A stretch of DNA of 55,075 bases from a virus: the IMG/VR virus record IMGVR_UViG_3300036719_004687, positions 1-55,075 of that record; one strand, given 5' to 3'. Shown here in pieces: positions 17,401-55,075 of the stretch; the stretch's first letter is position 1, and each line of letters opens with the position of its first letter. A program made the position numbers and the translations under genes. The notes under the pieces were generated by a model. It made no database searches, was not told the DNA's origin, and worked only from the letters and a program-made list of their open reading frames with translations.

Positions 17401-20400
17401 TGCTGCAAATATAGATAAATTAGTAAGCAGTATGGCTGCTAAAAGATTTATGTATGGTGGACCAGTACAAAAATTTATGGCTGGTGGAGTAGCAGAGTCT
17501 TTATCAGCAGATAGTTTATATGCACAAATACTAGAATTAGGTAATCCACAAGATGTTAGAGGACTTGCTGGAGGCTCTTCTTTTATAGATCAAAAATTAA
17601 AAGCCGTTCAGACTAGCGATAAGCCAGCTACAAGTAAAGAAATCTTTAAAAAGAACTTTTTATTAAGTGATAGAAGTAAACCATACCTATCTACTATACA
17701 AGAATTACTGGAAATTGCTAATTCTAATAAAAAAAGACCAAGGATATTCACAGATGCAGAAAAAGCTAGCGCTACTAAACTAGGATTAGTTGGTATGTTT
17801 CCTTTTGGTGTGGATGAATTGCTATATGAACAAATTGGTGATCGTATTGTAGCAATTCAAATGAAGAGTTTGACACAGGATAAGGCTGGTATTGTTGATC
17901 AAATGAGAAAAGAAATAGATGCAGTTTTAGGTAGAACTACAGCATCTCTCTATGGAACATCTGGCCAGGATCTTAGTACTACTACTAAAGAAGGTTTAGG
18001 TTTAGGTAATCTAGAAGGATATATGATTGAAGCTATTTTAGCAAAAGCTGGAGCTAATCCTGGTAAATTAGACGATAGATCGGTAGACTATGCATCCGGT
18101 TTGGGAAATGCTGCTAGCCTATTCGGAATAGACCCAAATATTCCTACAGAAGTTAAAAGAGATGTTAAGGGAGGACTCAGCAAAGCCAGAGATAATTTTA
18201 AAAACTATTTTGCTAAATTTGCTTTTGGCGGTAAAGCCACTGGTCCATCTTTTGAAGATGTCAGGAAACAAATTCTAGATAAGTATCCACAAATTAATTT
18301 TAGAATTAGTAAAAGAAAACGTGGTTTTGGTTACAATATATTAGGTGGCCTAAAACAAGAAGGAGATAATGTTGGTAATTATGCTGATTTTCAACAAGCT
18401 TCTAATTTAGAACAACTGTCAGCACTAGCTGATAAAATGGCTAATCAATTACAATATGTTTATGGTCCAAATATTGATCCATCTTTATTAAAGAAAAAAC
18501 AGAAAAAGTTTGCTTTAGGCGGATTAGCAGAAGCCACAGGGGAAATGTCTTCTTTAATGAGTGGATTATATGGTAATAGATCTCAAGAGCAAAACTTACC
18601 ACAGAAAAAAGAAAAAGAATTTGGTAAGATTGGTCTTAGATCTGATGGATCAGAAATAACAGCCACCTATTTTAAAAATCAAACACGAGAGGGCTTTGTT
18701 ACTGCTAAAAAAGCTGCTGATAATTTATATACTGTAGGATTATCTAAAGCTACTAAGGGTTATGGTCCTAGATTATATGATGTTGTTATGGAAGCTGCAA
18801 CATCTGCTGGTGGTATGCTTACATCAGATAGAAATAGTGTTAGTGGTGCTGCTCGTGCTGTTTGGGATTATTATTTTAATAATCGAGGAGATGTTAAAAA
18901 GACACCATTAGATCCATCACAATGGACTAAGAATCAAAGTCTTATAGATCCAAAATTATACGGTAAGAAAGAAACATGGCCACCATCAACTGACCCAGCC
19001 TGGATTTTACAAAGTGGATATAGTAAGAACGCTGAATTAATAAATAGTTCAGAAATTATTAATATGAATGATCCAAAATATAAACAATTTTTGGATTCTC
19101 AAAAAGTATCATTCATGACACAAGCTGTGTTGGCTGGTAATATGCGTAATAATGGTGGTAGTATCAAAAAATTTGCTAAGGGAGGATCAGCAGAAGATAC
19201 TGTACCAGCTCTGTTAACTCCTGGTGAATTTGTTATTAATAAAAAAGCTGCTAAACGCATAGGATATAATAAATTACATAAATTAAATAAAGCAGATAAA
19301 CTACAAGGATATAATAAGGGTGGTTCTGTTGGTATGATACAAAAATTTGGTGCTGGAGGTTCACCACAACCTTGGCCCAAAGATTTAATGAAATATACCA
19401 CAGAGAATAAACTAGCATTAGCGGCAGAACAAGCAGAGTTTTTTGCATATAAAGCCAAAGAGGCTGGTCAAACAGTTAGTCAATTTAGTAAAACATTAGC
19501 AACTAAAGTTGTTTCAAGAGCTAGGGATTTACAGACTAATTTAAAAAATAAACAAACAGGACTAAAATATAGTGTCTTAGGTCAGGCTGATGAATTAAAG
19601 GGTAGTAATAATAAAGATATTCTTAAAAAAGCAGTAGAAGATTTTAGTAATCAGATTCAAGAAATAGATCCTTCTAAATCTGCTGATGAAGTTAAGAAAA
19701 CAGCACAGGCTATAGTAAGAGGATTAAGAGATGGATTATCTTTAGATGCTATTAAAAAGAAAAGTCAAGATGTAGCGGATGTATTTTCTAAAGTATATAA
19801 AGAAGGAGAAGCTACTCAAGAAGCATTGAAGTTAGTAGCTAAAGAAGCTGGAATGAGTTCTGAAGCGCTTCAAAGAGGAGTAGGATCTAATAGAATTCGT
19901 CAAGAACAATTTATTCAGAGTGATGCTGGCCAAAATTTTGGTCGTTTAGCACAGTTAATTCCTGATAAACTAGAAAAATTATCTAAAACTGGTTTTGGTA
20001 AGGGATTTACTGGTTTGGCTAATGCTTTGAGTGGTAAAGGACTATCCGAAAAACTAGAAAAAAGTTTTGGTAAAGTTGGTGGTTTTATTGGAGATAAATT
20101 AGATGCTATAGGAGGCCCACTAGTAGCGCTCGGATCTGCTACAGCAATACTAGGTGAAAAATTACCTTCTCTATTAGGTAGTCAGTATGCGACTAGTACT
20201 ACTGCTGCTGGTGTGGCTGGAGGTATTGGTGGTGCTGGTCAAGGTTTAGCTAGTGGTGCTTTGTTGGGTATGCAAATAGCTGGTCCTGTAGGAGCAATGA
20301 TTGCTGGTATTACTGGAGCTGTTGTTGGTGGTATAAGCGGAGCCTTTGAGGCATTTAATCAAAAGAAATTAGAAAATAATCTTAAGGCTTTAGAAAAAAC

Positions 20401-23400
20401 TAGTGGAGATTTATCGGCAGCACTTAAAAGATTATCTATAGAAGCTAGCGATGTTAACATTAAAAATGTAAAATCTGCACTGGGTGCTGATTTACGAAAT
20501 TTAGAAAATGTTGGACAACAAGCTCAGTTTGGTGCTAGTGGTAGTGCTAGAGATTGGCTGGAATTTACGCGAAATCTTCCTCTTATTGGTGGTTTGGTTA
20601 CCAGTGTTACTGGAGGTAATCAAGAAGCTGAAGCTAGACAAGCTGTAGTAGCTGGAATAGAAAGGGCTTTTGATAGCGCTAATAGGCTGGGAGATATTAA
20701 TAGATCTGGTGCTCCATTAGCTCAAATACAAGGATTATTATCACAGGCTAATCAAGCAGCCGAGGATGCTGGGGGCATAAAAACAGAAGCTGGACAAAAA
20801 GCTAGAGATGAAATTTTAGCTCGTGGAAGTCAAGCATATCAACAACTCAGAGCACAAGGTGCTAGTGCAGACTCCATATTTAAAGCTGCTGGAATGAAAG
20901 AAGCACAACAGCAGGGCAGAGACGTATCTAAAGAATTAAAAATGCCAGGAGGTGAACAAAAATTAATAGAAGAAGGTAAAAGAGCATTAGCTATTCAAGA
21001 AGAAGCTGCACTCAAACAAGAACTAGTTGCCGATGCTATGAGAAACGTATCGGTACAATCTGATAATTTGATTGATATGTATCGAAGAATGCAAGCAGGA
21101 TTAGAAAGACTTGGACAAAGTATAGATACTATTAAAAATAGAGCTAATGATGCGGCTAATGTTTTAATGGGTCAGGCTTCCATTACTAATGTAGATAGAC
21201 GTAGTGAACAAGTCCTAGGTAATATAAGTGCTTATTCATCTAATGAAGTAGCATCTGTGGCTGAACAAACGGCAGTTATTGCTGGCGGGGGTGAAGAGGG
21301 TAAAAGATTAGCAGATCAAATTAAAGCAAATAAGTTATTAACAGATCAGTTACCCAAACTATTAAAAGGGGCTACTGGACAAAATGTTGGTGGTGTAGTT
21401 GACGAACTAGAAAAAATGTTTGCACAAGCTCAATTAACAGCACCGGCTGGATTATTTGATTCTATTGAACAAGAGCTACAAAGTAAACTACAAGGAAGAG
21501 AAGAAAGTTCTATTGGAGATTTAGCAGAAGAGTTGGATATTGTTGGAATAGCATCTAAAACAACTGGTGAAGCCTTAAAAACTTCACAAATTTTGCAAAA
21601 ACAATATAATGATGCTACACAAACCGTGACCGATTTAATGAATCAATATGGAAAAGCTCTCAATGAAGCTACTGAATGGCAATTAAGGGCCACAGATATT
21701 AGAGCCAGAGCAGATATTCAATTAGCGGAAACTTTAGGTAAAACATTAAGTTTAGCTGAACAAAATGCACCACAACAACAAAGAATTTTAGGTTTAACTA
21801 GTGGTGTTATACAAGGAGGCTCTTTAGATCCTAATAAGATTTTTGCCACAATGACCGCCGCTATAGCAGAATTAGGTCAAGCAGGAACGGAAAATAAACC
21901 AGCTACAGGTATGTATGCTGAATTAGACAAAGTCAAAGGAACCCCAGCAGAAGCAGAACAGCTAGCACTAATTGCAAAACAGAACAATGCTATTAATAAT
22001 AGTAGAAAAGCATTAGAAGAGCTAGCAAACGATGGTTCAGCAGCAGCTAATGCATTAAAAAGACTACAAGAGCAACAGAAGGTGGCAGCAGGATCTGTAA
22101 ACTTTTTGCAAAAAGTATTAACCAGTGATGCTACTGAATTGGATAAGATGAATAAAGGACTAGCTGCATATACTAAATTAGTGAGCGGTAAAGCTACGGC
22201 TGGTGATATTAATAGTCTACAATTTAGACAACAGGCGTTTGGTGGTTTGCAAGAAATGCAGGGACTATTACCAGATAGTGTGTTCAATCAGATGCAAGCT
22301 AAGATGAGTGAAGCTATGATTGATGCTATGCCTGGTGGATCAGATATGTTGGATAGAAGTACAGGTGCATTATATACTGCCGATGAAATTGATCCCGCTA
22401 CTGGACAAAAAAGGGCAGTTACTAAAGAAATGACCTTTAGACAAGCTTTAAGGATGAGGGCAGAAGGTAAAGATCCAGTGCAGCAACAATTTATAGATGC
22501 TTATAACGCTGCTGTACAGGCCCAACAGGACGCTGCTAGGCTTTTAGCCACCTCGTCTGTTCAAGCTGCCGAAACTTTTAAACAAGCAGCAACAGAGGCA
22601 CTACAAGCAAGAAATGAAGCACCACGATCAATTTTAGAAAGAGCCAAAACAGAAGCAGAAGCTGTGGTAACTCCACCAACAGAAAAACCAAGAGAAAATA
22701 CACTAGTTAAAACCGAAGCACAACTTGATGCAGAGGCGAAGGATAAAGATCCTTTATCTTTAGGCTTAGAAAATGTGAACACAAGTATATCTAATCTTAC
22801 TACAGCTATATATACTTTGGCCGGTACTATTACAGCATTAGTTGGTGCTATAGCAGCATACAAAACCATACAATCTGCTGGTGGTATTGGTAATGCTATA
22901 GGAAGCGCTGTGGATATGGTTCGTGGCCGTCGCAGAAGAACTGGATTTGGTGGTTCTGACGCTCCATCAGCAGGATCTCGCGCTGCTGGAAATGCTAGAA
23001 AAAATGCTCGTTATGATTCAGATGGTGTTCGTGGAGAAGCAAGTCGCGCTCCTAAAACACAAGCAGATATTGATGCTCAAAGAAAAAGGATTGAAGCTAA
23101 ACGTACGAAAGCAGAGCAAGGCACAACTCCAAAAAAACCAGTAGTGGCCACGCCCACTCCAGATGTCAAACCCAAAGTTTCAGTTACTCCACCTCCTGTT
23201 CCTGGTAAAACAATTGTTGGCCAATTTCCACCACCTGAAGCTCCCAAACCTCAAGTTAAACCAGATATTGTACCACCACCAGTTCCTGGAAAAACAATAG
23301 TTGGCCAATTTCCTCCTAAAACTGAAGCATCACTACCAAAATCAGCCACAAAAGCAGCTGGTGCTGTAGTTGATGCGGCTTCATCATTAGACGAAGTTGT

Positions 23401-37228: not shown

Positions 37229-38207
37229 TTAAACCTCCGAGATCTAACTTAGATAGTACATAATTTATATTATTCTGTAATGTACAATTTTTTACAAACC
37301 AACTTCTAGCATTATTTCTAATAAAGTTTAAATATTCAATATCATCCTTAATTTTATTTAAATAATAAATTAAATATTCAGCAAACTCGCCATAATTTAA
37401 ATACCAAGGATTACCATCCCAGTATTTACAATCAGTATAGCAACTAATATAATGATAGTTTGGAATAAGCGGATCAGGATACTGAATATTCAAATATGGT
37501 CTAATTACTGGAACACCAATACCAAAACATTCTATATCTCTGTTGCATACTTCTGTTCCTCCGGGTAAACTTAGTGCAACTCTATATTGAGTTAAATCTT
37601 TAAGATAACTAATATAGTCTAATGATTGATTATTAGTATTTCTATCAATAATTAATATAGATGGATCTTTAATATGATCAATCATATATTTTCTAAAATC
37701 CCATAAATAACCTCTAAAATATAACTGTGGAATTGTAGACTCTATACTTGTTGATTTAAATAAGTCTTCTATAAACTCAAGAGAGCCATCCTCATATGGA
37801 CCATAAAAGAAAGACTCATATCTAGTTTTAATATCAGATGGACAATCTATGTCTGGATTATCTTTTTCATAATTTTTAAAACTAAAATAGTCAATATAAT
37901 TAAAGCCACCAGGATAGAAAAATTGAACCATTTTAGATGGTTTCCATCCCAAATGTTGCATAAAATGATACTTCCAATTATCAAAAAATGATATTAGTAT
38001 ATATTTTTGATTGATTGGATTAAGTATAGAAAAATTCATACAACTATAAATGCTACCATATCCATTATCTTCATATTGAGGTTCATTTTTAATAGTAAAT
38101 GAATATTGAGGATAATCAATACATAACTTATCATATAGTTTATTAAAAAATGTAGTTACATAATATTTTCCTAGATCTCTAAACTGATGTCTGACAATTA
38201 ATTCCAT
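37221..38207 (-). CDS. glycosyltransferase, exostosin/GT90-like, putative
   Basis: A 328-residue protein with the C-terminal pattern YRVALSLPGGTEVCNRDIEC followed by FGIGVPVIRP, the donor-binding region seen in exostosin-like and GT90-like glycosyltransferases (a SLPG, R/E and GxPV order). An ATG at 38207 overlaps the upstream gene by 10 bases; a further in-frame ATG at 38237 would overlap by 40 bases, and neither has a clear ribosome-binding sequence. The N-terminal half is rich in Tyr, Phe and Asn. It lies in the island between the methyltransferase-like and GT60-like genes. Confidence 0.6.
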   Translation of the reverse strand: MELIVRHQFRDLGKYYVTTFFNKLYDKLCIDYPQYSFTIKNEPQYEDNGYGSIYSCMNFSILNPINQKYILISFFDNWKYHFMQHLGWKPSKMVQFFYPGGFNYIDYFSFKNYEKDNPDIDCPSDIKTRYESFFYGPYEDGSLEFIEDLFKSTSIESTIPQLYFRGYLWDFRKYMIDHIKDPSILIIDRNTNNQSLDYISYLKDLTQYRVALSLPGGTEVCNRDIECFGIGVPVIRPYLNIQYPDPLIPNYHYISCYTDCKYWDGNPWYLNYGEFAEYLIYYLNKIKDDIEYLNFIRNNARSWFVKNCTLQNNINYVLSKLDLGGLND

Positions 38208-39481
38208 AATATTGGACCAGTTATGGGATCGGCCCATCCTTTATTAATACTATGAGGCCATACTAACCAACTGTGTGGTTTTTCTTTTGTTATAAAACTT
38301 CTCCAAACTTTACAGTATCCTTCTGGATCATTTTTCATTCTGGATATTTCATCAGAATCAGCATCTTGTCTAAAAATATCATTTCCTTCTTTATCTTTAA
38401 AGGCAACAGCCCAAAAATCATAATCATCTTCAGGCACCTGATCATAGCCAATATCAATACAATGTTTAAAAATTGGCTGCAATGAATCTTCAAATGCTTG
38501 ATCAGATATTGTCATATTTTCCAACTTTGGCGGCTTATGATCAATCACATCTTGTGTTATAGAACGTGTACTAAATTGCATACCGGCATATTTTTCATAG
38601 TCTTTTAATGATCGAACATTACCAAAACTATATTTACCAAAATCAATATCATTAATTTCATTATCCATACCGAATAATTTACGATTTCTTAGATGACATT
38701 TATTATTTTTGTCTACCCACTTAGTATCATCATCCCATTGTTTGCTGCGTCCCTTTCGCGTATATTCATGCCAACACACTACTTTATGAGGATAAAATAT
38801 ATCGTACCCATGAGTAAAAGCTCTAACAGCAACATTTATTTCTTCACCATGAAAATAATAGTTCGGATCATGTTTAACTTCTTTAGCAAATATTCCTAAA
38901 GTAAATGCAAAATGAGCACTATAAAAACGGCCCATTAATGGTTCATCTAAATTATCTATATCAGAATTAAAGGAAGCAGGAAGAAAGAATACTGCACCTT
39001 CTGGTATGTATCTATCAAAGGTCATTTTCCATGGCTCTTGAACTCTAGCATCCGGATCATTATCAGGATCAAAACTAGGGATATATGCTGTTATAAGAGG
39101 CTTAGGATATCCTTTATCCTGAAGAGATAATAACATATCTATTAATATTTCATCCCAATTTTCTATAAATCTATGATGACTATCTAGTTGCAGAGTATAC
39201 GTTTCACCCTGATATAAATTCTGGACCAGATTTCTCGCCCAACAAACTCCTTGACTATCTCTGTAGTCGATATCTATAATCTTAAAGCGACTATCATAAA
39301 TATAATCATTTAAATGATCCCATTCATCCAGATCACAATGTTGCCAGCATATAGCAAATCTTAAATTTTCTGGATATTTAGCTTTACTAATACAATCTTT
39401 TAATGTGGGTAATAATTGAGGATCTCGATAAGATGCAATTTGTATAAATATAGTATTAGTTTTCTTTTCGTTCTGTTGCAT
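38198..39481 (-). CDS. GT60-like glycosyltransferase (GlcNAc-transferase family, polypeptide-type)
   Basis: A 427-residue enzyme that matches the Pfam GlcNAc family layout: IFIQIASYRDPQLLPTLKDC at residue 11, FAICWQHC, GVCWARNLVQNLYQGE, LQLDSHHRF (Asp100, metal-binding) and later YFHGEEINVAVRAFTHGYD with an FYPHK turn. Known members of this family (CAZy GT60) are polypeptide alpha-GlcNAc-transferases: one modifies hydroxyproline of Dictyostelium Skp1, and one starts mucin-type O-glycosylation on threonine in Trypanosoma cruzi. That family knowledge, plus a Thr/Ser/Pro mucin-like protein 4 kb away, suggests protein O-glycosylation here. The sugar and acceptor are not proven by sequence. It overlaps both neighbours. 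Confidence 0.75.
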   Translation of the reverse strand: MQQNEKKTNTIFIQIASYRDPQLLPTLKDCISKAKYPENLRFAICWQHCDLDEWDHLNDYIYDSRFKIIDIDYRDSQGVCWARNLVQNLYQGETYTLQLDSHHRFIENWDEILIDMLLSLQDKGYPKPLITAYIPSFDPDNDPDARVQEPWKMTFDRYIPEGAVFFLPASFNSDIDNLDEPLMGRFYSAHFAFTLGIFAKEVKHDPNYYFHGEEINVAVRAFTHGYDIFYPHKVVCWHEYTRKGRSKQWDDDTKWVDKNNKCHLRNRKLFGMDNEINDIDFGKYSFGNVRSLKDYEKYAGMQFSTRSITQDVIDHKPPKLENMTISDQAFEDSLQPIFKHCIDIGYDQVPEDDYDFWAVAFKDKEGNDIFRQDADSDEISRMKNDPEGYCKVWRSFITKEKPHSWLVWPHSINKGWADPITGPILWN

Positions 39482-46279: not shown

Positions 46280-46875
46280 GATTTTATCTTTAAGTTGAGA
46301 TCTATCATCTTATTAAGAATTTCAAAAATAAAATGATTATGATTCATAGGGTTAGAAATTAAACTTTTAAAATTATTAATATGGTCTTTAGATATAAAAT
46401 ATATTTCTGATAAATAGTTATCCAAATCATACGCAATATTATATACGTTCTGGTTTTGTACAATACATCCAAGTCGAGTTTTATTTTTTGAGTTTATAAA
46501 AACCTGTGACTCGTTACTTAATTTAAAAGAACCAAATGTCGCTGGTTTAATAATGTGATCTCCAAAAAATATAATGCAGTCATCGTTTAAATATTCTTTT
46601 ACTAAACTTAAACTATATACATTATTATGATCATCGTAGTGTGGATTATAAATTAGCTTAATCTTTGGATAACTTAAAATATTTTTATTGATATAAGAAA
46701 TAAATCGTTTATTATCAAATCCATATACATATATAATATTCGCATTAGGGAAAATAGAATGTAGAGTTTTGTATTGATGAGATATAATGTTTTTATTATT
46801 ATACTTGATAAGACCAACACATCCTCTAGATTTCATTCTTTTTTGATATTTATCACCTAATATAATTATATTCAT
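46264..46875 (-). CDS. sugar-nucleotide nucleotidyltransferase-like protein
   Basis: A 203-residue protein resembling GT-A-fold NTP transferases. Residues 1-30 give the nucleotide-binding start (MNIIILGDKYQKRMKSRG), followed by ANIIYVYGFDNKRF, NNVYSLSLVKEYLNDDCIIF and FGDHII (metal-binding Asp). The usual GxGxR loop is altered to GDKYQKRMKSRG, so activity is uncertain. The family activates sugar phosphates or choline to nucleotide-bound forms, which fits supply of donors to the neighbouring glycosyltransferases. It overlaps both neighbours. Confidence 0.6.
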   Translation of the reverse strand: MNIIILGDKYQKRMKSRGCVGLIKYNNKNIISHQYKTLHSIFPNANIIYVYGFDNKRFISYINKNILSYPKIKLIYNPHYDDHNNVYSLSLVKEYLNDDCIIFFGDHIIKPATFGSFKLSNESQVFINSKNKTRLGCIVQNQNVYNIAYDLDNYLSEIYFISKDHINNFKSLISNPMNHNHFIFEILNKMIDLNLKIKSCQSA

Positions 46876-47630
46876 ATAATATTAAATTTATTAGTATTAC
46901 TTAATAGATTGTTGCCATGAAATGCGTCAAACCTATAAACAAGACTACTAAATACTATACATGATTTATCTTTATTACTCAATACGTCAAATTGATCCAA
47001 ATCCTCATGTACCACCCTATTAGTGGTTTTTATCATGTGTGTTAAATCATTATTAAATTGTTCATTGTTCACAATAAATCTATACTTGGGATTCATTGTT
47101 ATAATGTTATGTAATATACTGCTATAGGATAGTGATAGATCCAAAATAGTTTGGATTCTCCACATATATTTAACGGAGTATTTCTGTAATAGTTCTTCAA
47201 TATTAGTATATTGTAATGATTTATCATTATCAACATATCTAATAAGAATGAGTTTTTTAGGTTGAATTTCACACTCTGAAATCTGTTTCAACATTATGTC
47301 TAGTTGATCCAGAGTAATATTTTTTAAATTAATTGTTAATAAATAATCTAAAGTATTAGTTTCTAAAAATTTATTGATTTTATCTTCAACAGTAGCGTCT
47401 TGTAAATCAAATTGTTTGAACCATTTGTTTTCTCTGTATCCCAAACATTTTTTGCCATTTATAATATAAAATTCTTTCTCGTCATCATATGCTTCTAATA
47501 CAGACACATTTTTATTTTTATATTTATCTATATATTTGAGATTACAGTCTATTTGAGTGTTATTATTAAACTCTGCAAATACACAGTTTTTACACGGAGT
47601 GTGAATAGTATTAATTTGCTCGTTTATCAT
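46872..47630 (-). CDS. protein with N-terminal CxxCxFA motif, unknown function
   Basis: A 252-residue protein. The N-terminal 65 residues have a distinctive Cys set: PCKNCVFAEFNNNTQIDC, an EAYDDEKEFYIINGKKC block and LGYRENKW. Four Cys could bind zinc or an iron-sulfur cluster. The rest is strand-helix with LLTINLKNITLDQLDIML and a KYRFIVNNEQFNNDL segment that resembles part of a GT-A fold without a DxD. It overlaps neighbours by four bases on each side within the glycosyltransferase unit. It may be a maturation partner or a divergent glycosyltransferase. Confidence 0.5.
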   Translation of the reverse strand: MINEQINTIHTPCKNCVFAEFNNNTQIDCNLKYIDKYKNKNVSVLEAYDDEKEFYIINGKKCLGYRENKWFKQFDLQDATVEDKINKFLETNTLDYLLTINLKNITLDQLDIMLKQISECEIQPKKLILIRYVDNDKSLQYTNIEELLQKYSVKYMWRIQTILDLSLSYSSILHNIITMNPKYRFIVNNEQFNNDLTHMIKTTNRVVHEDLDQFDVLSNKDKSCIVFSSLVYRFDAFHGNNLLSNTNKFNII

Positions 47631-49276
47631 ATAAAGTCTTCTTTAACTATTTGTTGAGGATTAACTCTCATCTTTTCGCACATAATTTTATTATTTAATA
47701 ATCCTTCCAAAACATCTATGCTATATTGTTTATTTATAGTCATTATGTTGCCATTTTTAGCAATAATGCCATTAGTAACATCTTTTATGAGTGTTTGTAT
47801 ATTAGCCGTGTTTAATAAATATGGATCATTTATTACATTTAAACAAATAAATTCTATAAAATCTTTATCATTTAAACCCTTTGGAACCTTTAGGGACATA
47901 TTTTTAATCTGTGGAATATTTTTGTCATCCCAAGATAATTTTTTAGTAATATCTATAGAATCAAAAGCTTCTTCCCATACGCTATATACATTATCCCAAG
48001 AGTATAAAGAGATACATTTATTACGAATATTAGTTCTGTTAGCTTGACGAGTATCTATTGATTTATTAATGAAAAAATCATACAATACTTGTGCTGTAAA
48101 GTCATTATCTGGATATGCTCTATCAGCATTAATTTCCATCTCTCTAAACATTCTATCTACCCGCAACTTTATACCATCAAGCTTCTCTACAATTTCTGTC
48201 ATTGCACTATAGTCTACAGAAGCTATTTGAACACCACAGGCCGCTGCTTCAACTTGTGGCATACCAAATCCTTCGCATATTGCATATTGAATGAATATAT
48301 CAAATAAATTATATATATTATTCAGTTCCTGTGTTGTTACCCCATTCATAGGACTAGACATATGTACTGCTTTAGCTCCGCACTTAGTACAATTTGTCAC
48401 ACCAGGATGAAACTTACTAGGATGAGAATCTCCACAGTTTTTGCATTTATATGTAAAATAAATCTTGTCTAGTAAGCCATATTCGGACAATAAAGCAGGA
48501 AGATCCCAACCATTATCTTCTGGATAAGAAGTATGTAAATATAGATATGTTTTATCATAAACATCTTTGTGTCCTGATTGTTTTAAGTTGTTTAAAAAAG
48601 ACTTAAAAGCAATCATAATATCAGCAAGTAGTTTGCGTTTTTGATTACGCATAACTAAACCAACTACGTTTATATCCTTACCAAAATATTTGATTTTATG
48701 CTCTTTTTGGTTTTCTATAATATAAAAATCTTGTGGATTAATACCAGCATTGGCTACTCTAGGAAATAGATTTATATTCTTGCCACATGATTGTGTAAGA
48801 ACTTTTTTGGCCCAATCGGTATATGGAATAATTAGTTCTGCGTTTTTATATGTATAAAGCCAGTCTGTTTTGGGCGGTGTTGAATCAGTAGTTGGCATGA
48901 TTAGCCAATGAAAATGATGTCTATAAGGACTCATATCCTGATATGCATACATCCAATAATCTCGAACATCAAAAACTATATGTGGTTTAAAATCAATTAA
49001 ACACCTATTAAATCTCCATAAGCCAAATTGATTGAGCATATTAGCTTTGTACTGCTCAACACGAGAATCATTAGCGGCCACAGCATTAGGATAAAATTTC
49101 CATGGTATATTTTTAATTTTAGGATTATCTTTATCGCAATAGCATCCTAATTCTGCTACCTCGTATTTGTCACTTTTGTGTATACGAGATATAATTTCTT
49201 TACCGTAGATTCCGTATCCAGTATCTAAAATACTAGCATCATTAGCAATAAAAATTTTCTTTTTTTGATGTTTCAT
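47627..49276 (-). CDS. glycosyltransferase, GT-B (GT4-like), with inserted zinc ribbon
   Basis: A 549-residue enzyme, first in the sugar island. It opens KKIFIANDASILDTGYGIYG (the GT-B N-domain GG-A loop) and has VVGLVMRNQKRKLLADIMI, then the donor site YAICEGFGMPQVEAAACGVQ (E-x7-E) typical of GT4. A zinc ribbon (CKNCGDSHPSKF and CTKCGAKAV, residues about 277-300) is inserted between the two. The C-terminal 140 residues are extra helices. No strong ribosome-binding sequence precedes the ATG. A terminator for the upstream SSB gene lies just before it, so this unit may need its own promoter or read-through. Confidence 0.8.
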   Translation of the reverse strand: MKHQKKKIFIANDASILDTGYGIYGKEIISRIHKSDKYEVAELGCYCDKDNPKIKNIPWKFYPNAVAANDSRVEQYKANMLNQFGLWRFNRCLIDFKPHIVFDVRDYWMYAYQDMSPYRHHFHWLIMPTTDSTPPKTDWLYTYKNAELIIPYTDWAKKVLTQSCGKNINLFPRVANAGINPQDFYIIENQKEHKIKYFGKDINVVGLVMRNQKRKLLADIMIAFKSFLNNLKQSGHKDVYDKTYLYLHTSYPEDNGWDLPALLSEYGLLDKIYFTYKCKNCGDSHPSKFHPGVTNCTKCGAKAVHMSSPMNGVTTQELNNIYNLFDIFIQYAICEGFGMPQVEAAACGVQIASVDYSAMTEIVEKLDGIKLRVDRMFREMEINADRAYPDNDFTAQVLYDFFINKSIDTRQANRTNIRNKCISLYSWDNVYSVWEEAFDSIDITKKLSWDDKNIPQIKNMSLKVPKGLNDKDFIEFICLNVINDPYLLNTANIQTLIKDVTNGIIAKNGNIMTINKQYSIDVLEGLLNNKIMCEKMRVNPQQIVKEDFI

Positions 49277-49289
49277 TGTTTGAACTAAG

Positions 49290-49323
49290 AAAAATCTCTA
49301 GTAACATTATATTACTAGAGATT
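49290..49323 (-). terminator. rho-independent terminator after ssb
   Basis: A perfect 12-bp stem (49293-49304 with 49312-49323) with a 7-base loop is followed, on the minus strand, by five T bases. It lies 22 bases after the SSB stop and before the glycosyltransferase gene. It separates SSB transcription from the sugar island. Confidence 0.85.
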
Positions 49324-49345
49324 CTCTTAGATATCCTTTATAAGA

Positions 49346-49711
49346 TCAGAATGCTACAGTAGCAGAGTCTGTGCTCTTTTCGCTCTTCTTTGTCTTAGTA
49401 ATCTTAGCAAAATTGTTAACACGAACCTTTAGGGTACTGTGCTTAACACCATCCTTTTCCCAACTGTCATTGCGTAATGAACCTTCGACCATAACTAGAT
49501 CACCCTTCTTGAAAGATGAACCAATGGCCTCGGCACCACTATCCCATGCTTCACATTGGATAAAAGATGTAACCTTATCTTGTTCGCCATTAGCTTTAGT
49601 AAACTCTCTTGATACTGCAACTGTAAAATTTACTACAGCAGTTTGCTTTTCTCCAACTACTCTGAGTTCAGGATCTCTGGCAAGGTTACCACGCAACATA
49701 ACAATATTCAT
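49346..49711 (-). CDS. ssb: single-stranded DNA-binding protein
   Basis: A 121-residue protein with the SSB OB fold: MNIVMLRGNLARDPELRVVG, VVNFTVAVSREF, TSFIQCEAWDSGAEAI and KGDLVMVEGSLRNDSW. It coats single-stranded DNA at the replication fork. The C-terminus ends in TDSATVAF; an aromatic last residue and an Asp a few residues earlier partly resemble the acidic DDDIPF tip of bacterial SSBs, but the acidic run is missing. An AAAGGAG ribosome-binding sequence precedes the ATG. It has its own promoter and terminator, and its C-ending codons suggest high expression. Confidence 0.95.
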   Translation of the reverse strand: MNIVMLRGNLARDPELRVVGEKQTAVVNFTVAVSREFTKANGEQDKVTSFIQCEAWDSGAEAIGSSFKKGDLVMVEGSLRNDSWEKDGVKHSTLKVRVNNFAKITKTKKSEKSTDSATVAF

Positions 49712-49762
49712 AAAATCTCCTTTTAAAGTAAATAAACCAACAGTTTGGATCGAAACATCTAT

Positions 49763-49790
49763 ATGATATACCGGCGGTATGGATTGTCAA
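49763..49790 (-). promoter_or_regulatory. sigma70-like promoter of ssb
   Basis: On the minus strand TTGACA (49785-49790) and TATCAT (49763-49768) are 16 bases apart, matching the -35 and -10 consensus (6/6 and 5/6). The -35 overlaps the stop codon of the polymerase C half. The start point would lie about 40-50 bases before the SSB ATG. Confidence 0.8.
49768..49780. promoter_or_regulatory. palindrome in the ssb promoter spacer, possible operator
   Basis: ATACCG-C-CGGTAT (13 bases, perfect 6+1+6 inverted repeat) occupies the spacer between the -35 and -10 boxes of the SSB promoter. It is GC-rich in an AT-rich region. A repressor or activator bound there would directly control SSB transcription. 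Confidence 0.55.
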
Positions 49791-51403
49791 GTTTTGGCGA
49801 TGTATGCTTTTTCCACTATCAGACCATCACCATTTTTAGACTTATTACCCTTGACAATTATAATATTTCCAGTGAACAATAAGTTTTTGTATTCTTTAAA
49901 CTTTTCTGGAAAAAAGACTACTGAATCTATAGACCCCGTAGTATCTGTCATTGTTACAAAAGCCATTTCCTGACCTGGAGTTTTTCCGCTCTTTGTTTTT
50001 GTAATATTAATATTATCTAATTCACCACCCAATATAAGATTATCTTTCATAGTAGTATTTTTTAGTTCTCTACAAGTAATATTAGTCATGCTAATATCAT
50101 ACATGTCCAGTTTAGAACATGTAATAGAACAACCCAGTAAAGAATCCTCAGCATCTGCTATCCATTCTGGTGAATCATCTAAAGAATACGGAGGAAAATT
50201 AATAGAATAAATAGCATCATCTATAATTTTTTTACGGTTCTTATTTAGCCTAGGCATAGAAGACAATGATTCCAAACACTCTTTAAAGTTTTTTAGCTTA
50301 GAGAGATTGTTGTTGATATGCTCTAATTCTTTCTTAGTAAGAATAGATACTAAACCGTATTCAAAAAGCATTTTATTTCTAGTAATTGGAATAAAAGACA
50401 AAGCACCAGATTGTATAAGCGCTTTAGCTGCTGTTGAATTAATATTTGGAAGTATTTTACATAAGTAATCTAGCCATGTTAGATTTAATATATCGTGTTT
50501 AGATAACAACTCAATAAGCTTATCAAATACAGATTTTCCCACACCTTTAATATCTGTGATACCAAAATAAATTTGATTATTTTTCAATATAAAAAATTCA
50601 TTCAAATTCCTAATATCCGGCGTCTTAACAGAAATATCCATTTCGTTGGCATTTTGTACCAACTCTTTAATTTCTGCTTGAGGATCTATTTTATCCTTAG
50701 CAAAACGTAAGTATGATGCAAAAAAGATTTTGGGAAAATGTGCTTTAGTATAGGCTGATAAATATGCATTAATAGCATAGCTTACAGAGTGTGACTTATT
50801 AAAAGAATATCTTTGGCTTTTTTCTATCCACCCGAAAATCTGCTCTGCTTCTTCAGTATTAACTATACCAAGCTTAGTGGAACCTTCTAAAAATTTAGAT
50901 TTAACTTTAGCCATTTCTTCTGGCTTTTTCTTACCAATGGCTTTTCTTAACATATCTGCTTCTTGCAGATTAAAACCAGCGATTACTTTTGTAATTTCCA
51001 TCGCTTGTTCTTGATATACCATTTCTCCATACGTATTCTTTAATACAGGTTCTAATGAAGCGTGGAAATAATCGACAGACTCTAATCCATTCTTTTTATC
51101 AATATAATGATTACTAACCGTTTTGCCTTCTCTAACTGCCTCTAAACATCCTGGTCGCATAATACTAATTAGGGCCGACAATTGCTCTATATTTTCTGGT
51201 TTCAATTTTTTAGCCATAGACCTACCAAGTCTAGATTCTAATTGGAAACAACCCTTAGTATTACCACTAGAGATTAAATCCCAAGTTCTAGAACAATCCA
51301 GATTGATATTTTCTATGGTAGGATCAAAATTAATCTTTTTATTATCTTCTTGTTCAGAAACATCAAAAGAACAACCGCACGGATATTGAAACTTTTTAGC
51401 CAT
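49787..51403 (-). CDS. dnaE: DNA polymerase III alpha subunit, C-terminal half
   Basis: A 538-residue protein with only the C half of DnaE. After a 27-residue extension with PCGC, it starts where E. coli DnaE resumes after the third catalytic Asp: CFQLESRLGRSMAKKLKP, YGEMVYQEQAMEITKVIAG, EADMLRKAIGKKKPEEMAK (fingers) and SFNKSHSVSYAINAYLSAYT. A helix-hairpin-helix (IYFGITDIKGVGKSVFDKL) and a C-terminal OB domain (EMAFVTMTDTTGSIDSVVFF) follow. It lacks the catalytic aspartates, which are in the other half at 52965-54839. It overlaps the exonuclease gene by eight bases. The two halves must associate for activity; this is inferred. Confidence 0.9.
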   Translation of the reverse strand: MAKKFQYPCGCSFDVSEQEDNKKINFDPTIENINLDCSRTWDLISSGNTKGCFQLESRLGRSMAKKLKPENIEQLSALISIMRPGCLEAVREGKTVSNHYIDKKNGLESVDYFHASLEPVLKNTYGEMVYQEQAMEITKVIAGFNLQEADMLRKAIGKKKPEEMAKVKSKFLEGSTKLGIVNTEEAEQIFGWIEKSQRYSFNKSHSVSYAINAYLSAYTKAHFPKIFFASYLRFAKDKIDPQAEIKELVQNANEMDISVKTPDIRNLNEFFILKNNQIYFGITDIKGVGKSVFDKLIELLSKHDILNLTWLDYLCKILPNINSTAAKALIQSGALSFIPITRNKMLFEYGLVSILTKKELEHINNNLSKLKNFKECLESLSSMPRLNKNRKKIIDDAIYSINFPPYSLDDSPEWIADAEDSLLGCSITCSKLDMYDISMTNITCRELKNTTMKDNLILGGELDNINITKTKSGKTPGQEMAFVTMTDTTGSIDSVVFFPEKFKEYKNLLFTGNIIIVKGNKSKNGDGLIVEKAYIAKT

Positions 51404-52091
51404 TATTAGTAAATGAATCCTTAAATTTAATTTTTTGGCTTAGATTACGATGCAACTTTAAAAATCTTACTACAATTTCCGCAGTATCTTTAACGTCCTT
51501 TAGTGCATCATGAGCGCCAGCCTTTGATATTCCAAAATAATCTCTCACACTATCTAATGTATAACTTTTAAGTTCATTATTGTGTTCAAACCAATAAAAC
51601 ATTAATTGCATAGCATCAACAGTATCTCTGGGATAAAAGAGATCGGTTCTTTTTTCCTTATTAAGATTGCCATATTTCTGACTAAGTCTGTTAATGATAT
51701 GCAAGTCAAATCTATGAATATTGTATCCGGCAGCGATAGGTGCGGAAAATTGGCTTTTTTTAGAAGTTCTTGAATGATATTTATCTAAATAATTGACAAA
51801 CATATTCCAAGAATGTTCTTGCTTAGGATACTTATACCATGCTTGTAAAACATCGTCTGTTCCACACCCCTTAACTTTAGCATGAAAATCTAAAATATCT
51901 GTTTCGTATTTATAGTTATCATTATTTTCTAGTACTTCGGGCTTAAAATTAATATTAAATTCTGATCCATCAATAATCTCTAAATTAATAGGATCAATCA
52001 TAATAGCCGCGATCTGCACCGGACTACAATGAGCGGGATCAGATCCATCTGTCTCAAAATCAAAAACGCAAATTTTATTATAGTTGATCAT
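51396..52091 (-). CDS. DEDDh 3'-5' exonuclease (proofreading type)
   Basis: A 231-residue exonuclease of the DnaQ superfamily. ExoI is VFDFETDGSDPAHCSPVQIA (D-E), ExoII is GYNIHRFDLHIINRL (D) and ExoIII is KAGAHDALKDVKDTAEIVV (H-D), the complete DEDDh set. The gene lies immediately upstream of the polymerase C half, with an eight-base overlap, so it probably proofreads for the phage polymerase, as epsilon does for bacterial alpha. It also overlaps the small gene by 14 bases. No clamp-binding motif was identified. Confidence 0.9.
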   Translation of the reverse strand: MINYNKICVFDFETDGSDPAHCSPVQIAAIMIDPINLEIIDGSEFNINFKPEVLENNDNYKYETDILDFHAKVKGCGTDDVLQAWYKYPKQEHSWNMFVNYLDKYHSRTSKKSQFSAPIAAGYNIHRFDLHIINRLSQKYGNLNKEKRTDLFYPRDTVDAMQLMFYWFEHNNELKSYTLDSVRDYFGISKAGAHDALKDVKDTAEIVVRFLKLHRNLSQKIKFKDSFTNNG

Positions 52092-52266
52092 TAACTTGAA
52101 CTTCTATTGTGGGTTGAATAAATAGTTTAGCATTAGAATTTTGAGTTTCTTCTGCATTAATAGATCTGCAACAACTAACTTTAACTGCTGCGATCTTTTT
52201 ATATTCTATATTATTATATGTAAAAATTTCACCATCATTTAGGTCTTTAAACTGCTTATTTATCAT
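52078..52266 (-). CDS. small protein of unknown function
   Basis: A 62-residue protein with a small strand-rich opening (FKDLNDGEIFTYNNIEYKKI) and a CCRSINAEE segment with two adjacent Cys. It sits between the HNH gene (ATGA overlap) and the exonuclease (14-base overlap). The pattern DLNDGEIFTYN resembles small phage proteins of unknown function found among replication genes. It has no recognised domain. Confidence 0.55.
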   Translation of the reverse strand: MINKQFKDLNDGEIFTYNNIEYKKIAAVKVSCCRSINAEETQNSNAKLFIQPTIEVQVNDQL

Positions 52267-52946
52267 TGGTTACTCCTTGTTTTATTATATTTATAAATTT
52301 TTTCGCACCAGTCTAAAAATTCTATTTGACTCATATTCATTTTCATTGGTTGTAATTTTTTATGAATCCATTGTATATTATCTTGTGTGTAGCCCTGTGA
52401 CGAGTCTATTCTATCTAAAGATGCTGTGCTATATTTTGATGTTTTTCTAGTCATTGGAAAGTGAATAGGTAGTCCTGTTAAAGCACATTTTCTATCTTGT
52501 TGTAAAAATACTTGCCATGCTTGTTCAATAGTTATATCTAATGGAATTTTACGATTTTTTGCTCCCCTTAAGACCCTAGACCAATATTCTGCTCTAATTT
52601 CTTCGTAACCAGCATATAATGCATGATCTTTTCCTCTTTTTCTAGATTGGCAGCCACAGGTTTTTGTATTACCGCTTTTAATAGAATTTAACAATACATT
52701 AAAATTTGTACCACAGTTACACACACAATTATAAATACTATGGCTATGCTTATCTTTACCTAAATATTTTAATATAGTGATTTGTCCATATTTTTTACCT
52801 ATATGTTTAGTAGTATTATTTTCTTTTAATCCAAATATTTTTATTTGTTGACTAATATATGAATCAGAACACCCATAAATATTTGCTATTTCTTTTTGGC
52901 TATGATTAGCCATTAGTTTTTTAAGCCTGGTTTTAGAAATTTTCAT
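52263..52946 (-). CDS. HNH homing endonuclease between the dnaE halves
   Basis: A 227-residue protein. Residues 1-45 form a helix-turn-helix (HSQKEIANIYGCSDSYISQQ), residues 48-100 a zinc-finger-like part (CVCNCGTNF and TCGCQSR), and residues 120-225 a HNH-type nuclease: CALTGLPIHFPMT, ASLDRIDSSQGYTQDNIQW and HKKLQPMKMNMSQIEFLDW. The same nuclease core appears at 54836-55075. It starts 18 bases after the stop of the polymerase N half and is the likely agent that broke the polymerase gene. Homing endonuclease genes that insert within or next to polymerase and ribonucleotide reductase genes are known in other phages. Confidence 0.8.
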   Translation of the reverse strand: MKISKTRLKKLMANHSQKEIANIYGCSDSYISQQIKIFGLKENNTTKHIGKKYGQITILKYLGKDKHSHSIYNCVCNCGTNFNVLLNSIKSGNTKTCGCQSRKRGKDHALYAGYEEIRAEYWSRVLRGAKNRKIPLDITIEQAWQVFLQQDRKCALTGLPIHFPMTRKTSKYSTASLDRIDSSQGYTQDNIQWIHKKLQPMKMNMSQIEFLDWCEKIYKYNKTRSNQ

Positions 52947-52964
52947 AATAAGTTAAAATTGATA

Positions 52965-54839
52965 TTATAACTGTACACCATTAGCAAGTAAATCTTGAAT
53001 ACACATAACTTTATCTAAATATGCAATTCCTAAAATATCAAACTTTATTATTCCTAAACTTTCAAGATCTTGCATTTCCATGCCAGCAATTAGTTGATCG
53101 TTTTTACTATCATAAACCATTGGACATAATTCATTTAACGGTTCTGAACTAATCGCTATTCCAGCCGCATGTTTTGACTGATTGGATTTGGTGCCTTCTA
53201 GTCTTATAGCCTGTTCAAACCTTTTTGCCAACGGACCCTGTAGTTCTCCATTATCGTCAATATAGCACCACTCTTTAAGCTTTTCTTTGTTGTTTTCTAA
53301 AGCCCATCGAATAATTGATGCTTCTCCAGTTTCTTCTTTCATTTCCTGTAATTCGTCCGCAATCTTTGCTTCATCTGGAATATTTTTGGTAATTCTATTC
53401 ATTTCATCAAAACTTATGTTCCCATATACTCTTAAGACATCTTTTAAAGCACCTCTACCCTTAATAGTATTAAAGGTTACCATTTGTGATACTTTATTAT
53501 GTCCATATTTATTCTTGATATATTCAATAATCTCTTCTCGTTTATTAATTGGTACGTCCACATCAATATCCGGCATACTAATACGATCTTTTGTATTTCG
53601 ACCAGAATTATAAAATCTGTCAAAAATCAAATTATATCTTATAGGATCAATACTGGTAATACCAATAAGATAAGATACTAGACATCCGGCAGCAGACCCT
53701 CTTCCCGGCCCAGGAAGCCATTTATTTTGTCTTACATAATTCAATATATCTTGCACTATAAGAAAGTAACTACTTAACCCAGCGCCCTGTAAAACGTCTA
53801 GTTCATATTTAATACGATCTAAATATTGTTGTTGTTCTTCTTTAGGTATAATATTTGCAATTTTAGCTTTCCATCCATTACGACATAGTTCTCTTAAAAA
53901 TTCATCTTGATCAAACTTGTCTGGACATGGAAAACTGGGTAATTTCGGCTTGCTCAAAATGTCATATTCTTCAATTAAATTTGCTACAAAATTGGTATTT
54001 TGAATTTCCTCATTAGTATGTAACATCTTCATTTCTTCTTGAGATGGGATGTGATAATTTTCTGAAATAAAGAATGTAGACAATGGTACTTCTTCATTAT
54101 TAGAAATTTTTCTACTAATATCAGGAAAGGTTGTTTTTAAATTATTACATAGTAATATGCGTTGGTCTACAGCATCTTCTTTACGACAATAATGAGCGTC
54201 TGGAGTACAAATAACCAAAGTATCTGTCTCTTTGCCTAAGATACGAATCGCATTAGTTAAACGTGTTTGTACTGGAAGGTTTTCATTATCTATCAGTTGT
54301 GCTTCTAAAAAGACATGATTATTAAATATTTTCTTTAAGTATTGTATATGCTCTATTCCAAGTTCTTTCCAGTTCTCTTTAAGTTCATAATTATCCAGAA
54401 TAGTATCTGCTAATGTTGATCCTAAATGACCAGTAATAGCACACAGATTGCCACTGTTCATAGATGAGACAGTTGCTAAATCGAGCCTTGGTTTATGATA
54501 ATAATGTTCTGGCTTATTTGATTCGGATACTATTTTAATGAGATCAAGCCAGCCCTTATAGTTTTTTGCTAAAATAATAAAATGTGATAATTCTCTATTG
54601 GTTTTTTCTTGAATTTTAGGATCATCTTTACAGATATATAATTCACAACCTAAAATTGGTTTAATTCCAGCAGATTTCATTGCAGAATAAAACTTTACAG
54701 CACCGGCAATATTACCATGATCTGTAAGAGCACAAGCAGATGCGTTAATTTCTTTGCATCTTTCTGCAATTTGTTCTGGTTTAGATAGTCCATCCAATAA
54801 ACTAAGCATTGAATGACAGTGGAGAGGAATGTAATTCAT
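52965..54839 (-). CDS. dnaE: DNA polymerase III alpha subunit, N-terminal half
   Basis: A 624-residue protein carrying the N half of DnaE. The PHP domain (residues 1-270) has intact metal-site motifs: LHCHSMLSLLDG, TDHGNIAG, GCELYI and CTPDAHYC. The palm follows with GPGRGSAAGCLVSYLIG, MPDIDVDVP (two catalytic Asp, about residue 421) and IIKFDILGIAYLDK (third catalytic Asp, about residue 600). The frame stops 18 bases before the HNH gene. With the 538-residue C half the total is 1,162 residues, close to E. coli DnaE (1,160). The start overlaps the upstream HNH gene by four bases (ATGA). It replicates phage DNA if joined with the other half. Confidence 0.92.
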   Translation of the reverse strand: MNYIPLHCHSMLSLLDGLSKPEQIAERCKEINASACALTDHGNIAGAVKFYSAMKSAGIKPILGCELYICKDDPKIQEKTNRELSHFIILAKNYKGWLDLIKIVSESNKPEHYYHKPRLDLATVSSMNSGNLCAITGHLGSTLADTILDNYELKENWKELGIEHIQYLKKIFNNHVFLEAQLIDNENLPVQTRLTNAIRILGKETDTLVICTPDAHYCRKEDAVDQRILLCNNLKTTFPDISRKISNNEEVPLSTFFISENYHIPSQEEMKMLHTNEEIQNTNFVANLIEEYDILSKPKLPSFPCPDKFDQDEFLRELCRNGWKAKIANIIPKEEQQQYLDRIKYELDVLQGAGLSSYFLIVQDILNYVRQNKWLPGPGRGSAAGCLVSYLIGITSIDPIRYNLIFDRFYNSGRNTKDRISMPDIDVDVPINKREEIIEYIKNKYGHNKVSQMVTFNTIKGRGALKDVLRVYGNISFDEMNRITKNIPDEAKIADELQEMKEETGEASIIRWALENNKEKLKEWCYIDDNGELQGPLAKRFEQAIRLEGTKSNQSKHAAGIAISSEPLNELCPMVYDSKNDQLIAGMEMQDLESLGIIKFDILGIAYLDKVMCIQDLLANGVQL

Positions 54840-55075
54840 ATCTTATCAGCAACCATCTTACACAATAAAATAAATTCTTCCAATGATAAATTATTCTTCA
54901 TTAAGTTTATTTCCTTTTTTACCCACCAAATATTGTCTTTTGTATAGCCCTTCATACTATCAATTCTATCCACAGATGCATCAGTTGTCAAGTCTATTGG
55001 CATTCCGGTTATAGCGCATTTTCCATCTTGTCTAAGATACATATCATATAAATATTTTGCATCTATATTTGAATC
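54836..55075 (-). CDS. HNH endonuclease of the same family, truncated by the window
   Basis: The frame stays open to the window edge, so the true start lies beyond it. The visible C-terminal 79 residues contain CAITGMPIDLTTD, ASVDRIDSMKGYTKDNIWW and KKEINLMKNNLSLEEFILL, aligning residue for residue with the HNH protein at 52263-52946. It ends in a four-base ATGA overlap with the polymerase N half. Two related HNH genes therefore flank that half. Confidence 0.8.
   Translation of the reverse strand, partial: DSNIDAKYLYDMYLRQDGKCAITGMPIDLTTDASVDRIDSMKGYTKDNIWWVKKEINLMKNNLSLEEFILLCKMVADKI

What the first reader, a model, noticed from the sequence alone, without database searches (positions are those of the whole stretch)
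49787..54839. Phage DNA polymerase III alpha split into two genes with three genes between
The N half (52965-54839) holds PHP, palm and all three catalytic aspartates. The C half (49787-51403) begins exactly where the sequence after the third aspartate should continue. Their lengths sum to 1,162 residues, near an intact DnaE, so nothing large is lost. Each half alone would be inactive. The break lies between palm and fingers, unlike the split-intein DnaE of cyanobacteria, and no intein motifs are seen. It parallels the Aeh1 nrdA gene split by mobE.
Basis: partly seen in the sequence, partly recalled or inferred. Interest (0 to 1): 0.82.

Follow-up and report, generated by a model that had tools for sequence, protein, structure and literature searches.

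The report
Phage replicase made in two halves
A large group of uncultured viruses of microbes makes its main DNA-copying enzyme as two separate proteins with a proofreading gene between them, an old and stable arrangement and not a broken gene, which suggests that a bacterial-type replicase can work when put together from parts.

Summary
The split is real, but it is not an accident of this phage and was not made by the HNH gene. The N half (52965-54839) is PHP plus palm with all three catalytic aspartates; the C half (49787-51403) is fingers, HhH and OB fold. They meet at the palm/fingers linker. Of 341 loci examined, 245 (147 distinct junctions) carry N and C as separate genes with the same DEDD-type exonuclease gene between; 81 more distant polymerases are fused, without that exonuclease. 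41 split members chosen for a tree form one clade (support 1.0). Both halves are under purifying selection. The window and 25 large relatives show one such polymerase each and no PF00476 or PF00136 polymerase. No intein or intron was detected at the junction, and in some relatives other genes separate the halves, so they probably work in trans. The HNH gene is a late insertion (4 of 147 junctions). Best reading: a replicase core assembled from alpha-N, a proofreading exonuclease and alpha-C. Assembly and activity are inferred, not shown. Split phage polymerases are known; this is a new variant. Some relatives add a split intein, and 17 distinct starts show a possible ribosomal bypass.

The parts
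52965..54839 (-). alpha-N: PHP + palm/thumb half of DnaE-type polymerase, 624 aa, catalytic D424, D426, D601
   Evidence: D424, D426, D601 and K599 present in 134 of 134 aligned N halves
52263..52946 (-). freestanding HNH endonuclease, 227 aa; late insertion between alpha-N and the small ORF
   Evidence: PHROGs endonuclease/HNH; no such gene there in 143 of 147 distinct junctions; 56% identical homologue at the same place in L261
52078..52266 (-). small ORF, 62 aa, unknown function, usually conserved between alpha-N and the exonuclease
   Evidence: phrog_2183 E 6e-5; a tblastn match in 137 of 154 loci L002-L155
51396..52091 (-). DEDD-type (DnaQ-like) 3'-5' exonuclease, 231 aa, candidate proofreading subunit
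   Evidence: RNase_T, phrog_192 'DNA polymerase exonuclease subunit'; D11, E13, D129, H194, D199 invariant in 14 aligned; between the halves in 245 of 246 loci with separate halves
49787..51403 (-). alpha-C: fingers + HhH + OB fold half, 538 aa; starts 8 nt inside the exonuclease gene
49346..49711 (-). SSB gene next to alpha-C (context)
   Evidence: Pfam SSB E 1e-26
54836..55075 (-). 3' part of a second HNH gene, cut by the contig end, overlapping the start of alpha-N by 4 nt
   Evidence: PHROGs endonuclease E 1e-18; 57% identical over 75 aa to the HNH gene at the same place in L145

Best explanation
The phage encodes its own replicative DNA polymerase of the bacterial Pol III alpha (DnaE) family as two separate polypeptides. 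An ancestor's dnaE was opened once, in the linker between palm and fingers, and the operon order became alpha-N, small ORF, exonuclease, alpha-C. Shown: separate genes, one clade, conserved catalytic residues, purifying selection on both, no covalent joining device detected at the junction, no PF00476 or PF00136 polymerase in the window or 25 large relatives. Inferred: the halves are translated separately, often coupled to the exonuclease gene, bind each other through the old palm-fingers interface and, with the exonuclease as proofreading (epsilon-like) subunit, form the replicase core. The HNH gene at 52263-52946 is a later mobile passenger.
For: Separate with exonuclease between in 245 of 341 loci examined; 81 fused, none with that exonuclease in the locus; 1 separate without it (L341) is interrupted elsewhere; 14 hold only one half. 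147 distinct junctions; exonuclease stop to C start 25 nt or less in 137 of 147. Tree of 89 sequences that I chose: the 41 split+exonuclease members are one clade, support 1.0 with N, with C and with both. Median dN/dS N 0.074, exonuclease 0.079, C 0.104 (15 close members); N, C and exonuclease distances correlate at r 0.94-0.95 over 40 loci. Palm D424, D426, D601, K599 in 134 of 134. 25 of 25 large relatives: palm at one place (two pieces in G012 and G022) and fingers at one place (two pieces in G005); 0 of 25 with PF00476 or PF00136; 25 of 25 with DnaB helicase. The intein model matches parts of L092, L093 and L119 but nothing in the window halves. In L054, L125, L246 and L248 other ORFs (thymidylate synthase in L246) lie between exonuclease and C, so the halves behave as independent genes.
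Against: No protein, activity, read or RNA data. None of the 25 large relatives, nor the window, is rated 90% complete or more, so another polymerase could be missed; protein-primed family B (PF03175) was not searched. dS is often above 1.5, so dN/dS is rough. Models have moderate confidence (pLDDT 71-74) and the two chains could not be modelled together. No PF02768 clamp was found (0 of 25). The exonuclease as epsilon-like partner is inferred from gene position and family only.
Confidence: 0.82

Rival explanations
1. The HNH homing endonuclease split the gene in this phage, as mobE split nrdA in phage Aeh1.
For: An HNH gene lies between the halves here; HNH genes between alpha-N and the exonuclease in 4 of 147 distinct junctions.
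Against: In 143 of 147 split junctions no HNH gene lies there; the near relatives L003, L014, L016 and L024 are among these. In L003, L014 and L016 the small ORF follows alpha-N directly, so the HNH gene sits in an existing gene boundary.
Confidence: 0.03
2. The chain is rejoined after transcription or translation (intron, split intein).
For: Relatives do carry a split intein inside the N half, so the device exists in this clade.
Against: No Rfam intron family at E up to 1 in 46800-55075; ORFs fill the gap, leaving little room for an intron core; no intein model hit on either half; the N half ends in the natural palm helix and the C half starts with its own Met. Rfam holds only described intron families.
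Confidence: 0.05
3. One or both halves are relics, or have another job, and the phage relies on a host polymerase.
For: Other split phage polymerases may be auxiliary, as proposed for jumbo phages that also have family B polymerase (PMC7824862, passages).
Against: Catalytic residues kept, dN/dS about 0.1, no PF00476 or PF00136 polymerase in the window and 25 large relatives.
Confidence: 0.06
4. On origin (compatible with the best explanation): the break was first made by a mobile element (a split intein with its endonuclease, or an HNH gene) that was lost, and the exonuclease gene moved in afterwards.
For: The region attracts such elements: split intein at G381|S382, intein-like insert at about G85|C86 of the C half, HNH genes at two sites.
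Against: No relic of intein or endonuclease seen at the junction itself. Rossellomorea phage phiT1 is broken at the same linker with only a 49-aa ORF between, so no such element need remain or be involved.
Confidence: 0.3

Closest known systems
Rossellomorea phage phiT1 (PV767480) gp20-gp19-gp18
   Same: DnaE-type alpha in two genes broken in the same palm/fingers linker
   Different: Only a 49-aa ORF between, no exonuclease; groups with Bacillus/Geobacillus phage polymerases that are not broken there, so an independent event
Split minimal Pol III alpha of jumbo phages group 2.2 (PMC7824862, passages read)
   Same: Phage-specific Pol III alpha divided over two proteins thought to reassemble
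   Different: There: minimal, no other Pol III domains, distant genes, beside a family B polymerase. Here: PHP present, one operon with an exonuclease, no PF00136 polymerase found
T4-like phage gene 43A/43B; Aeh1 nrdA split by mobE (PMC2988022, passages read)
   Same: Essential phage enzyme encoded in two pieces; split Aeh1 ribonucleotide reductase reported fully functional
   Different: Family B polymerase or reductase; there linked to insertions in particular phages; here clade-wide and not explained by the endonuclease
Bacillus phage vB_BauM_KLEB27-3, Alicyclobacillus phage MMB025, Bacillus phage Jayan
   Same: dnaE in two annotated genes
   Different: Broken elsewhere: in the fingers (MMB025; KLEB27-3, close to the linker) or the palm (Jayan); HNH, endonuclease or small ORF between; whether spliced or functional is unknown
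Cyanobacterial split-intein DnaE (recalled)
   Same: DnaE from two genes
   Different: No intein detected here; different break point (recalled)
DNA polymerase genes split by endonucleases in Jug phages (PMC12363816, passages read)
   Same: Phage DNA polymerase genes frequently in pieces
   Different: Linked to intervening endonucleases; family and break point not stated in the passages seen

Membership tests
C-family DNA polymerase III alpha (DnaE) | PHP, palm with three catalytic Asp, fingers domains | tested here: met
C-family DNA polymerase III alpha (DnaE) | Single polypeptide | tested here: not met
   two ORFs, clade-wide
C-family DNA polymerase III alpha (DnaE) | Polymerase activity | not testable with these tools
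   needs expression
Split-intein DnaE | Intein N part at the end of one half and intein C part at the start of the other | tested here: not met
   no intein model on either half; control: the same model matches L119 above its cut-off and the half inteins of L092 and L093 below it; junction read
Gene split by freestanding homing endonuclease (Aeh1 nrdA/mobE type) | Endonuclease present at the break and intact gene in relatives without it | tested here: not met
   relatives without the HNH gene are split too
Group I/II intron-split gene | Intron RNA between the exons | tested here: not met
   no Rfam match at E up to 1 to an intron family; ORFs fill the gap
Jumbo-phage group 2.2 split Pol III alpha | Minimal form lacking other Pol III domains, distant genes, with family B polymerase | tested here: not met
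   PHP, HhH and OB present; median gap between halves 879 nt; no PF00136 in the window or in 25 relatives
DEDD-type DnaQ-like proofreading exonuclease (gene between) | Catalytic D, E, D, H, D conserved | tested here: met
   invariant in 14 of 14 aligned; assignment of residues from knowledge of the family
DEDD-type DnaQ-like proofreading exonuclease (gene between) | Binds alpha as epsilon does | not testable with these tools
   needs a complex structure or pull-down

The most novel reading that the evidence does not exclude
A whole virus clade replicates with a Pol III core that is never one chain: alpha-N, a proofreading exonuclease and alpha-C are separate subunits in one operon, and the N half itself is in some members built from further pieces, by protein trans-splicing (split intein at G381|S382) and possibly by ribosomes hopping over an 8-12 nt insert that begins with a stop codon and would otherwise cut off the PHP metal-binding HxH.
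Probability: 0.3. Interest if true: 0.85.

Novelty: new variant of a known kind. Interest (0 to 1): 0.62.

Why it matters
Bacterial replicases are studied as one-chain alpha subunits. A clade with a permanently divided alpha, broken at the palm/fingers linker and kept through great sequence divergence, makes it testable whether palm and fingers can be separate subunits, gives a natural split polymerase (useful for conditional replication tools), and warns annotators that half polymerases in viral genomes need not be relics. The independent break at the same linker in phiT1 suggests that this linker tolerates opening.

Tried and rejected
Rejected: chimeric assembly (junction identical in record L002, same arrangement in 146 other distinct junctions); HNH-caused split; intron at the junction and intein at the junction; second polymerase of families PF07733, PF00476, PF00136. 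The clamp family PF02768 was found in 0 of 25, so no phage clamp is shown; this does not exclude a divergent one.

Led nowhere or partial: Pseudomonas phage JG004 has a DNA polymerase I by annotation and is not relevant; Pseudomonas phage Y1 is intact. PHROGs matched few of the 20 other window proteins scanned, so phage taxonomy stays open; none of 50,697 phage records matches the exonuclease at E 1e-5. Rfam found no intron in the interrupted relatives L286 and L337, so the nature of those interruptions is open. Ten literature searches covered open-licence PubMed Central only; seven of them asked about split phage polymerases, and none showed this arrangement in the listings and passages seen. 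Six papers were opened, as searched passages only (PMC7824862, PMC12926913, PMC12363816, PMC2988022, PMC11878797, PMC5009743). No paper on phage phiT1 was searched for.

Errors corrected: skipped L002-L099 through a naming slip and are replaced. One search stopped on a script error. My note that the HNH gene lies between the halves only in the window held for L002-L155; one search added L261, L267 and L337. One search mismeasured the insert of L134; one search gives 8 nt.
Full report
What is there. The window is a whole 55,075-base virus record, linear, of unknown completeness. At its right end, on the minus strand, lie in order: the 3' part of an HNH gene, alpha-N (624 aa), a 227-aa HNH gene, a 62-aa ORF, a 231-aa exonuclease, alpha-C (538 aa) and SSB. 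alpha-N carries PHP and the whole Pfam palm model; alpha-C carries fingers, HhH and OB fold. A profile of N halves matches Thermus and mycobacterial DnaE chains to just beyond the third catalytic Asp; one of C halves matches E. coli alpha from residue 583 on. Models of each half (pLDDT 70.9 and 73.7) align to E. coli alpha (2hqa) 4-565 with Z 30.7 and 573-911 with Z 15.2. The break therefore lies in the palm-fingers linker. The C half begins with about 25 residues not seen in the 12 intact polymerases read; CGC is there in 127 of 147 distinct junctions, and by eye 10 of the other 20 have another CxC and 10 none.

How widespread. Searches with both halves, with an alignment of C halves in bacterial and archaeal genomes and with the distant relative L160 gave the loci. 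Four of the five searches were cut at the best 80 loci (of 244, 196, 546 and 170 relatives), so intact close relatives could be missed, but none was seen among those kept. One search classed 341 loci, window included: 245 separate with exonuclease between, 81 fused with no such exonuclease anywhere in the locus, 1 separate without it (L341, a polymerase interrupted inside the palm by another ORF), 14 with only one half in the locus. Of the 81 fused, 77 come from the one search of genomes. The 245 loci, several from the same contigs, give 147 distinct junction sequences; the 134 with an uninterrupted N half form 115 clusters at 95% and 64 at 80% identity. L160, from a contig binned to a Lokiarchaeota MAG, is still split at 49% (N), 38% (exonuclease) and 42% (C) identity to the window, and so is L337, 35% identical to L160 in the N half. 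In a tree of 89 sequences that I chose, the 41 split members are one clade with support 1.0 for N, for C and for both joined. The simplest reading is that the split happened once in this clade, long ago.

Do both halves matter? D424, D426, D601 and K599 are present in 134 of 134 N halves; the YSFNKSH and RPG motifs of the fingers are fully or nearly invariant in 20 C halves. Median dN/dS among 15 close members, window included, is 0.074 (N), 0.079 (exonuclease) and 0.104 (C), over the 75, 73 and 77 of 105 pairs with dS below 3; dS is high, so these are rough, and the largest values were 0.25, 0.48 and 0.19. In 25 of 25 chosen relatives of 77-230 kb the palm occurs at one place (two pieces in G012 and G022) and the fingers at one place (two pieces in G005); none has a PF00476 or PF00136 polymerase; all have DnaB. 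The window too has neither. None of these records is known to be complete, and protein-primed family B (PF03175) was not searched.

Why trans. No intron family at the junction, no intein model on either half, and little spare sequence: the exonuclease stop and the C start overlap or lie within 25 nt in 137 of 147. As a control, the intein model matches the L119 insert above its cut-off (46 bits against 35.8) and, below it, the two half inteins of L092 and L093. In 13 of 147 the gap between the halves exceeds 1.1 kb; in L054, L125, L246 and L248 whole ORFs lie between exonuclease and C, a thymidylate synthase in L246. That the two chains then form one enzyme is inference from DnaE structure and from precedent: the split Aeh1 reductase is reported fully functional (PMC2988022, passages).

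The HNH gene. In L003, L014 and L016 alpha-N is followed directly by the small ORF. HNH-type genes between alpha-N and the exonuclease are present in the window, L261, L267 and L337 (4 of 147); the L261 one is 56% identical to the window's and sits at the same place. This fits repeated homing into an intercistronic site. The window's gene ends in an AGGAGT stretch just ahead of the small ORF's start, so it seems to have kept that ribosome site.

Further pieces in relatives. Seven loci (L087, L088, L091, L092, L093, L126, L306) are broken at about residue 382 of the N half. In L092 and L093 the first ORF ends in an N-intein after GPGRG and the next begins with a C-intein ending HN before SAAG, with a 264-aa ORF between, the arrangement that I recall as 'fractured genes'; the L306 downstream ORF also has HN|S. 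L020, L021, L119 and L126 have an in-frame insert in the C half at about G85|C86; the L119 one scores as an intein.

Prior art. Jumbo phages of group 2.2 have a split minimal Pol III alpha beside a family B polymerase (PMC7824862, passages). T4-like phages have split gene 43 (PMC2988022, passages). Jug phages have DNA polymerase genes split by endonucleases (PMC12363816, passages). Introns are common in Bastillevirinae DNA polymerase genes (PMC11878797, passages). In a 2026 survey of bacterial DNA polymerases the three uses of 'split' are about other things (PMC12926913). Rossellomorea phage phiT1 has a break at the same linker, independent by the tree. The present arrangement, clade-wide with the proofreading gene between the halves, did not appear in seven literature searches of open-licence papers on split phage polymerases. 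I rate it a new variant of a known kind.

Side result: possible ribosomal bypass. could read the N-half start in 243 of 255 loci: 217 (117 distinct) are normal; in 26 (17 distinct, not the window) codons for Y-x-P-L-H-V/C-H-S are followed at once by a stop codon, and the coding sequence resumes after an insert of 8-12 nt in total. The insert lengths cover all three frames, so no single frameshift explains them. The HVHS peptide is kept through synonymous changes. The last triplet of the insert is NCN in 17 of 17 (TCA 6, ACT 5, TCT 2, GCT 2, TCC 1, GCC 1), though several of the 17 are closely alike. In 6 of 17 no ATG, GTG or TTG precedes SLLDG in its frame. An HNH gene or piece lies directly upstream in 7 of 17 (read by eye, library-checked for L026, L087, L145 and L306). 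T4 gene 60 has a stop codon right after the take-off codon, a bypassed insert and a link to a homing endonuclease (PMC5009743, passages). Against it: the landing triplet belongs to the take-off codon's UCN family in only 9 of 17; 11 of 17 have a possible in-frame start; and in 5 of the other 6 a TTG inside SLLDG could serve, which would drop HxH.

Noticed in passing
Start of the N half in L005, L020, L026, L058, L059, L061, L076, L087, L091, L134, L138, L145, L257, L258, L261, L306, L311: Stop codon plus 8-12 nt insert right after the conserved LH(V/C)HS codons of the PHP domain, in all three frames, peptide kept by synonymous change, HNH gene or piece upstream in 7 of 17: candidate ribosomal bypass or homing scar like T4 gene 60.
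   Followed up: partly
L092:4065-7154, L093:4050-7126, also L087, L088, L091, L126, L306: N half divided by a split intein at GPGRG|SAAG with a separate ORF between (264 aa in L092 and L093); for L087, L088, L091 and L126 only the break position was checked.
   Followed up: partly
L119:8001-10400, L020, L021, L126: Contiguous intein-like insert in the C half at about RPG|C; only L119 was tested with the intein model.
   Followed up: partly
L286:3108-6098 and six similar loci (L287, L289, L290, L292, L294, L295): N half interrupted next to the catalytic PDIDID motif by about 1.1 kb with a 283-aa endonuclease (read in L286); no Rfam intron, joining mechanism unknown.
   Followed up: partly
L356 (Bacillus phage vB_BauM_KLEB27-3), L348 (Alicyclobacillus phage MMB025), L350 (Bacillus phage Jayan): Phages whose dnaE is annotated as two genes with an HNH, an endonuclease or a small ORF between.
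   Followed up: partly
L159 and L160: Phage-like contigs of this clade binned into a Flavobacteriales MAG and a 'Candidatus Lokiarchaeota' MAG; host unknown, binning may be wrong.
   Followed up: no
window 38198-39481 (-): Glycosyltransferase with matches in 3 phage records only, 45-47% identical, large phages of Xanthomonas and Stenotrophomonas.
   Followed up: no
window 14498-25981 (+): One 3,827-aa ORF, unexamined.
   Followed up: no
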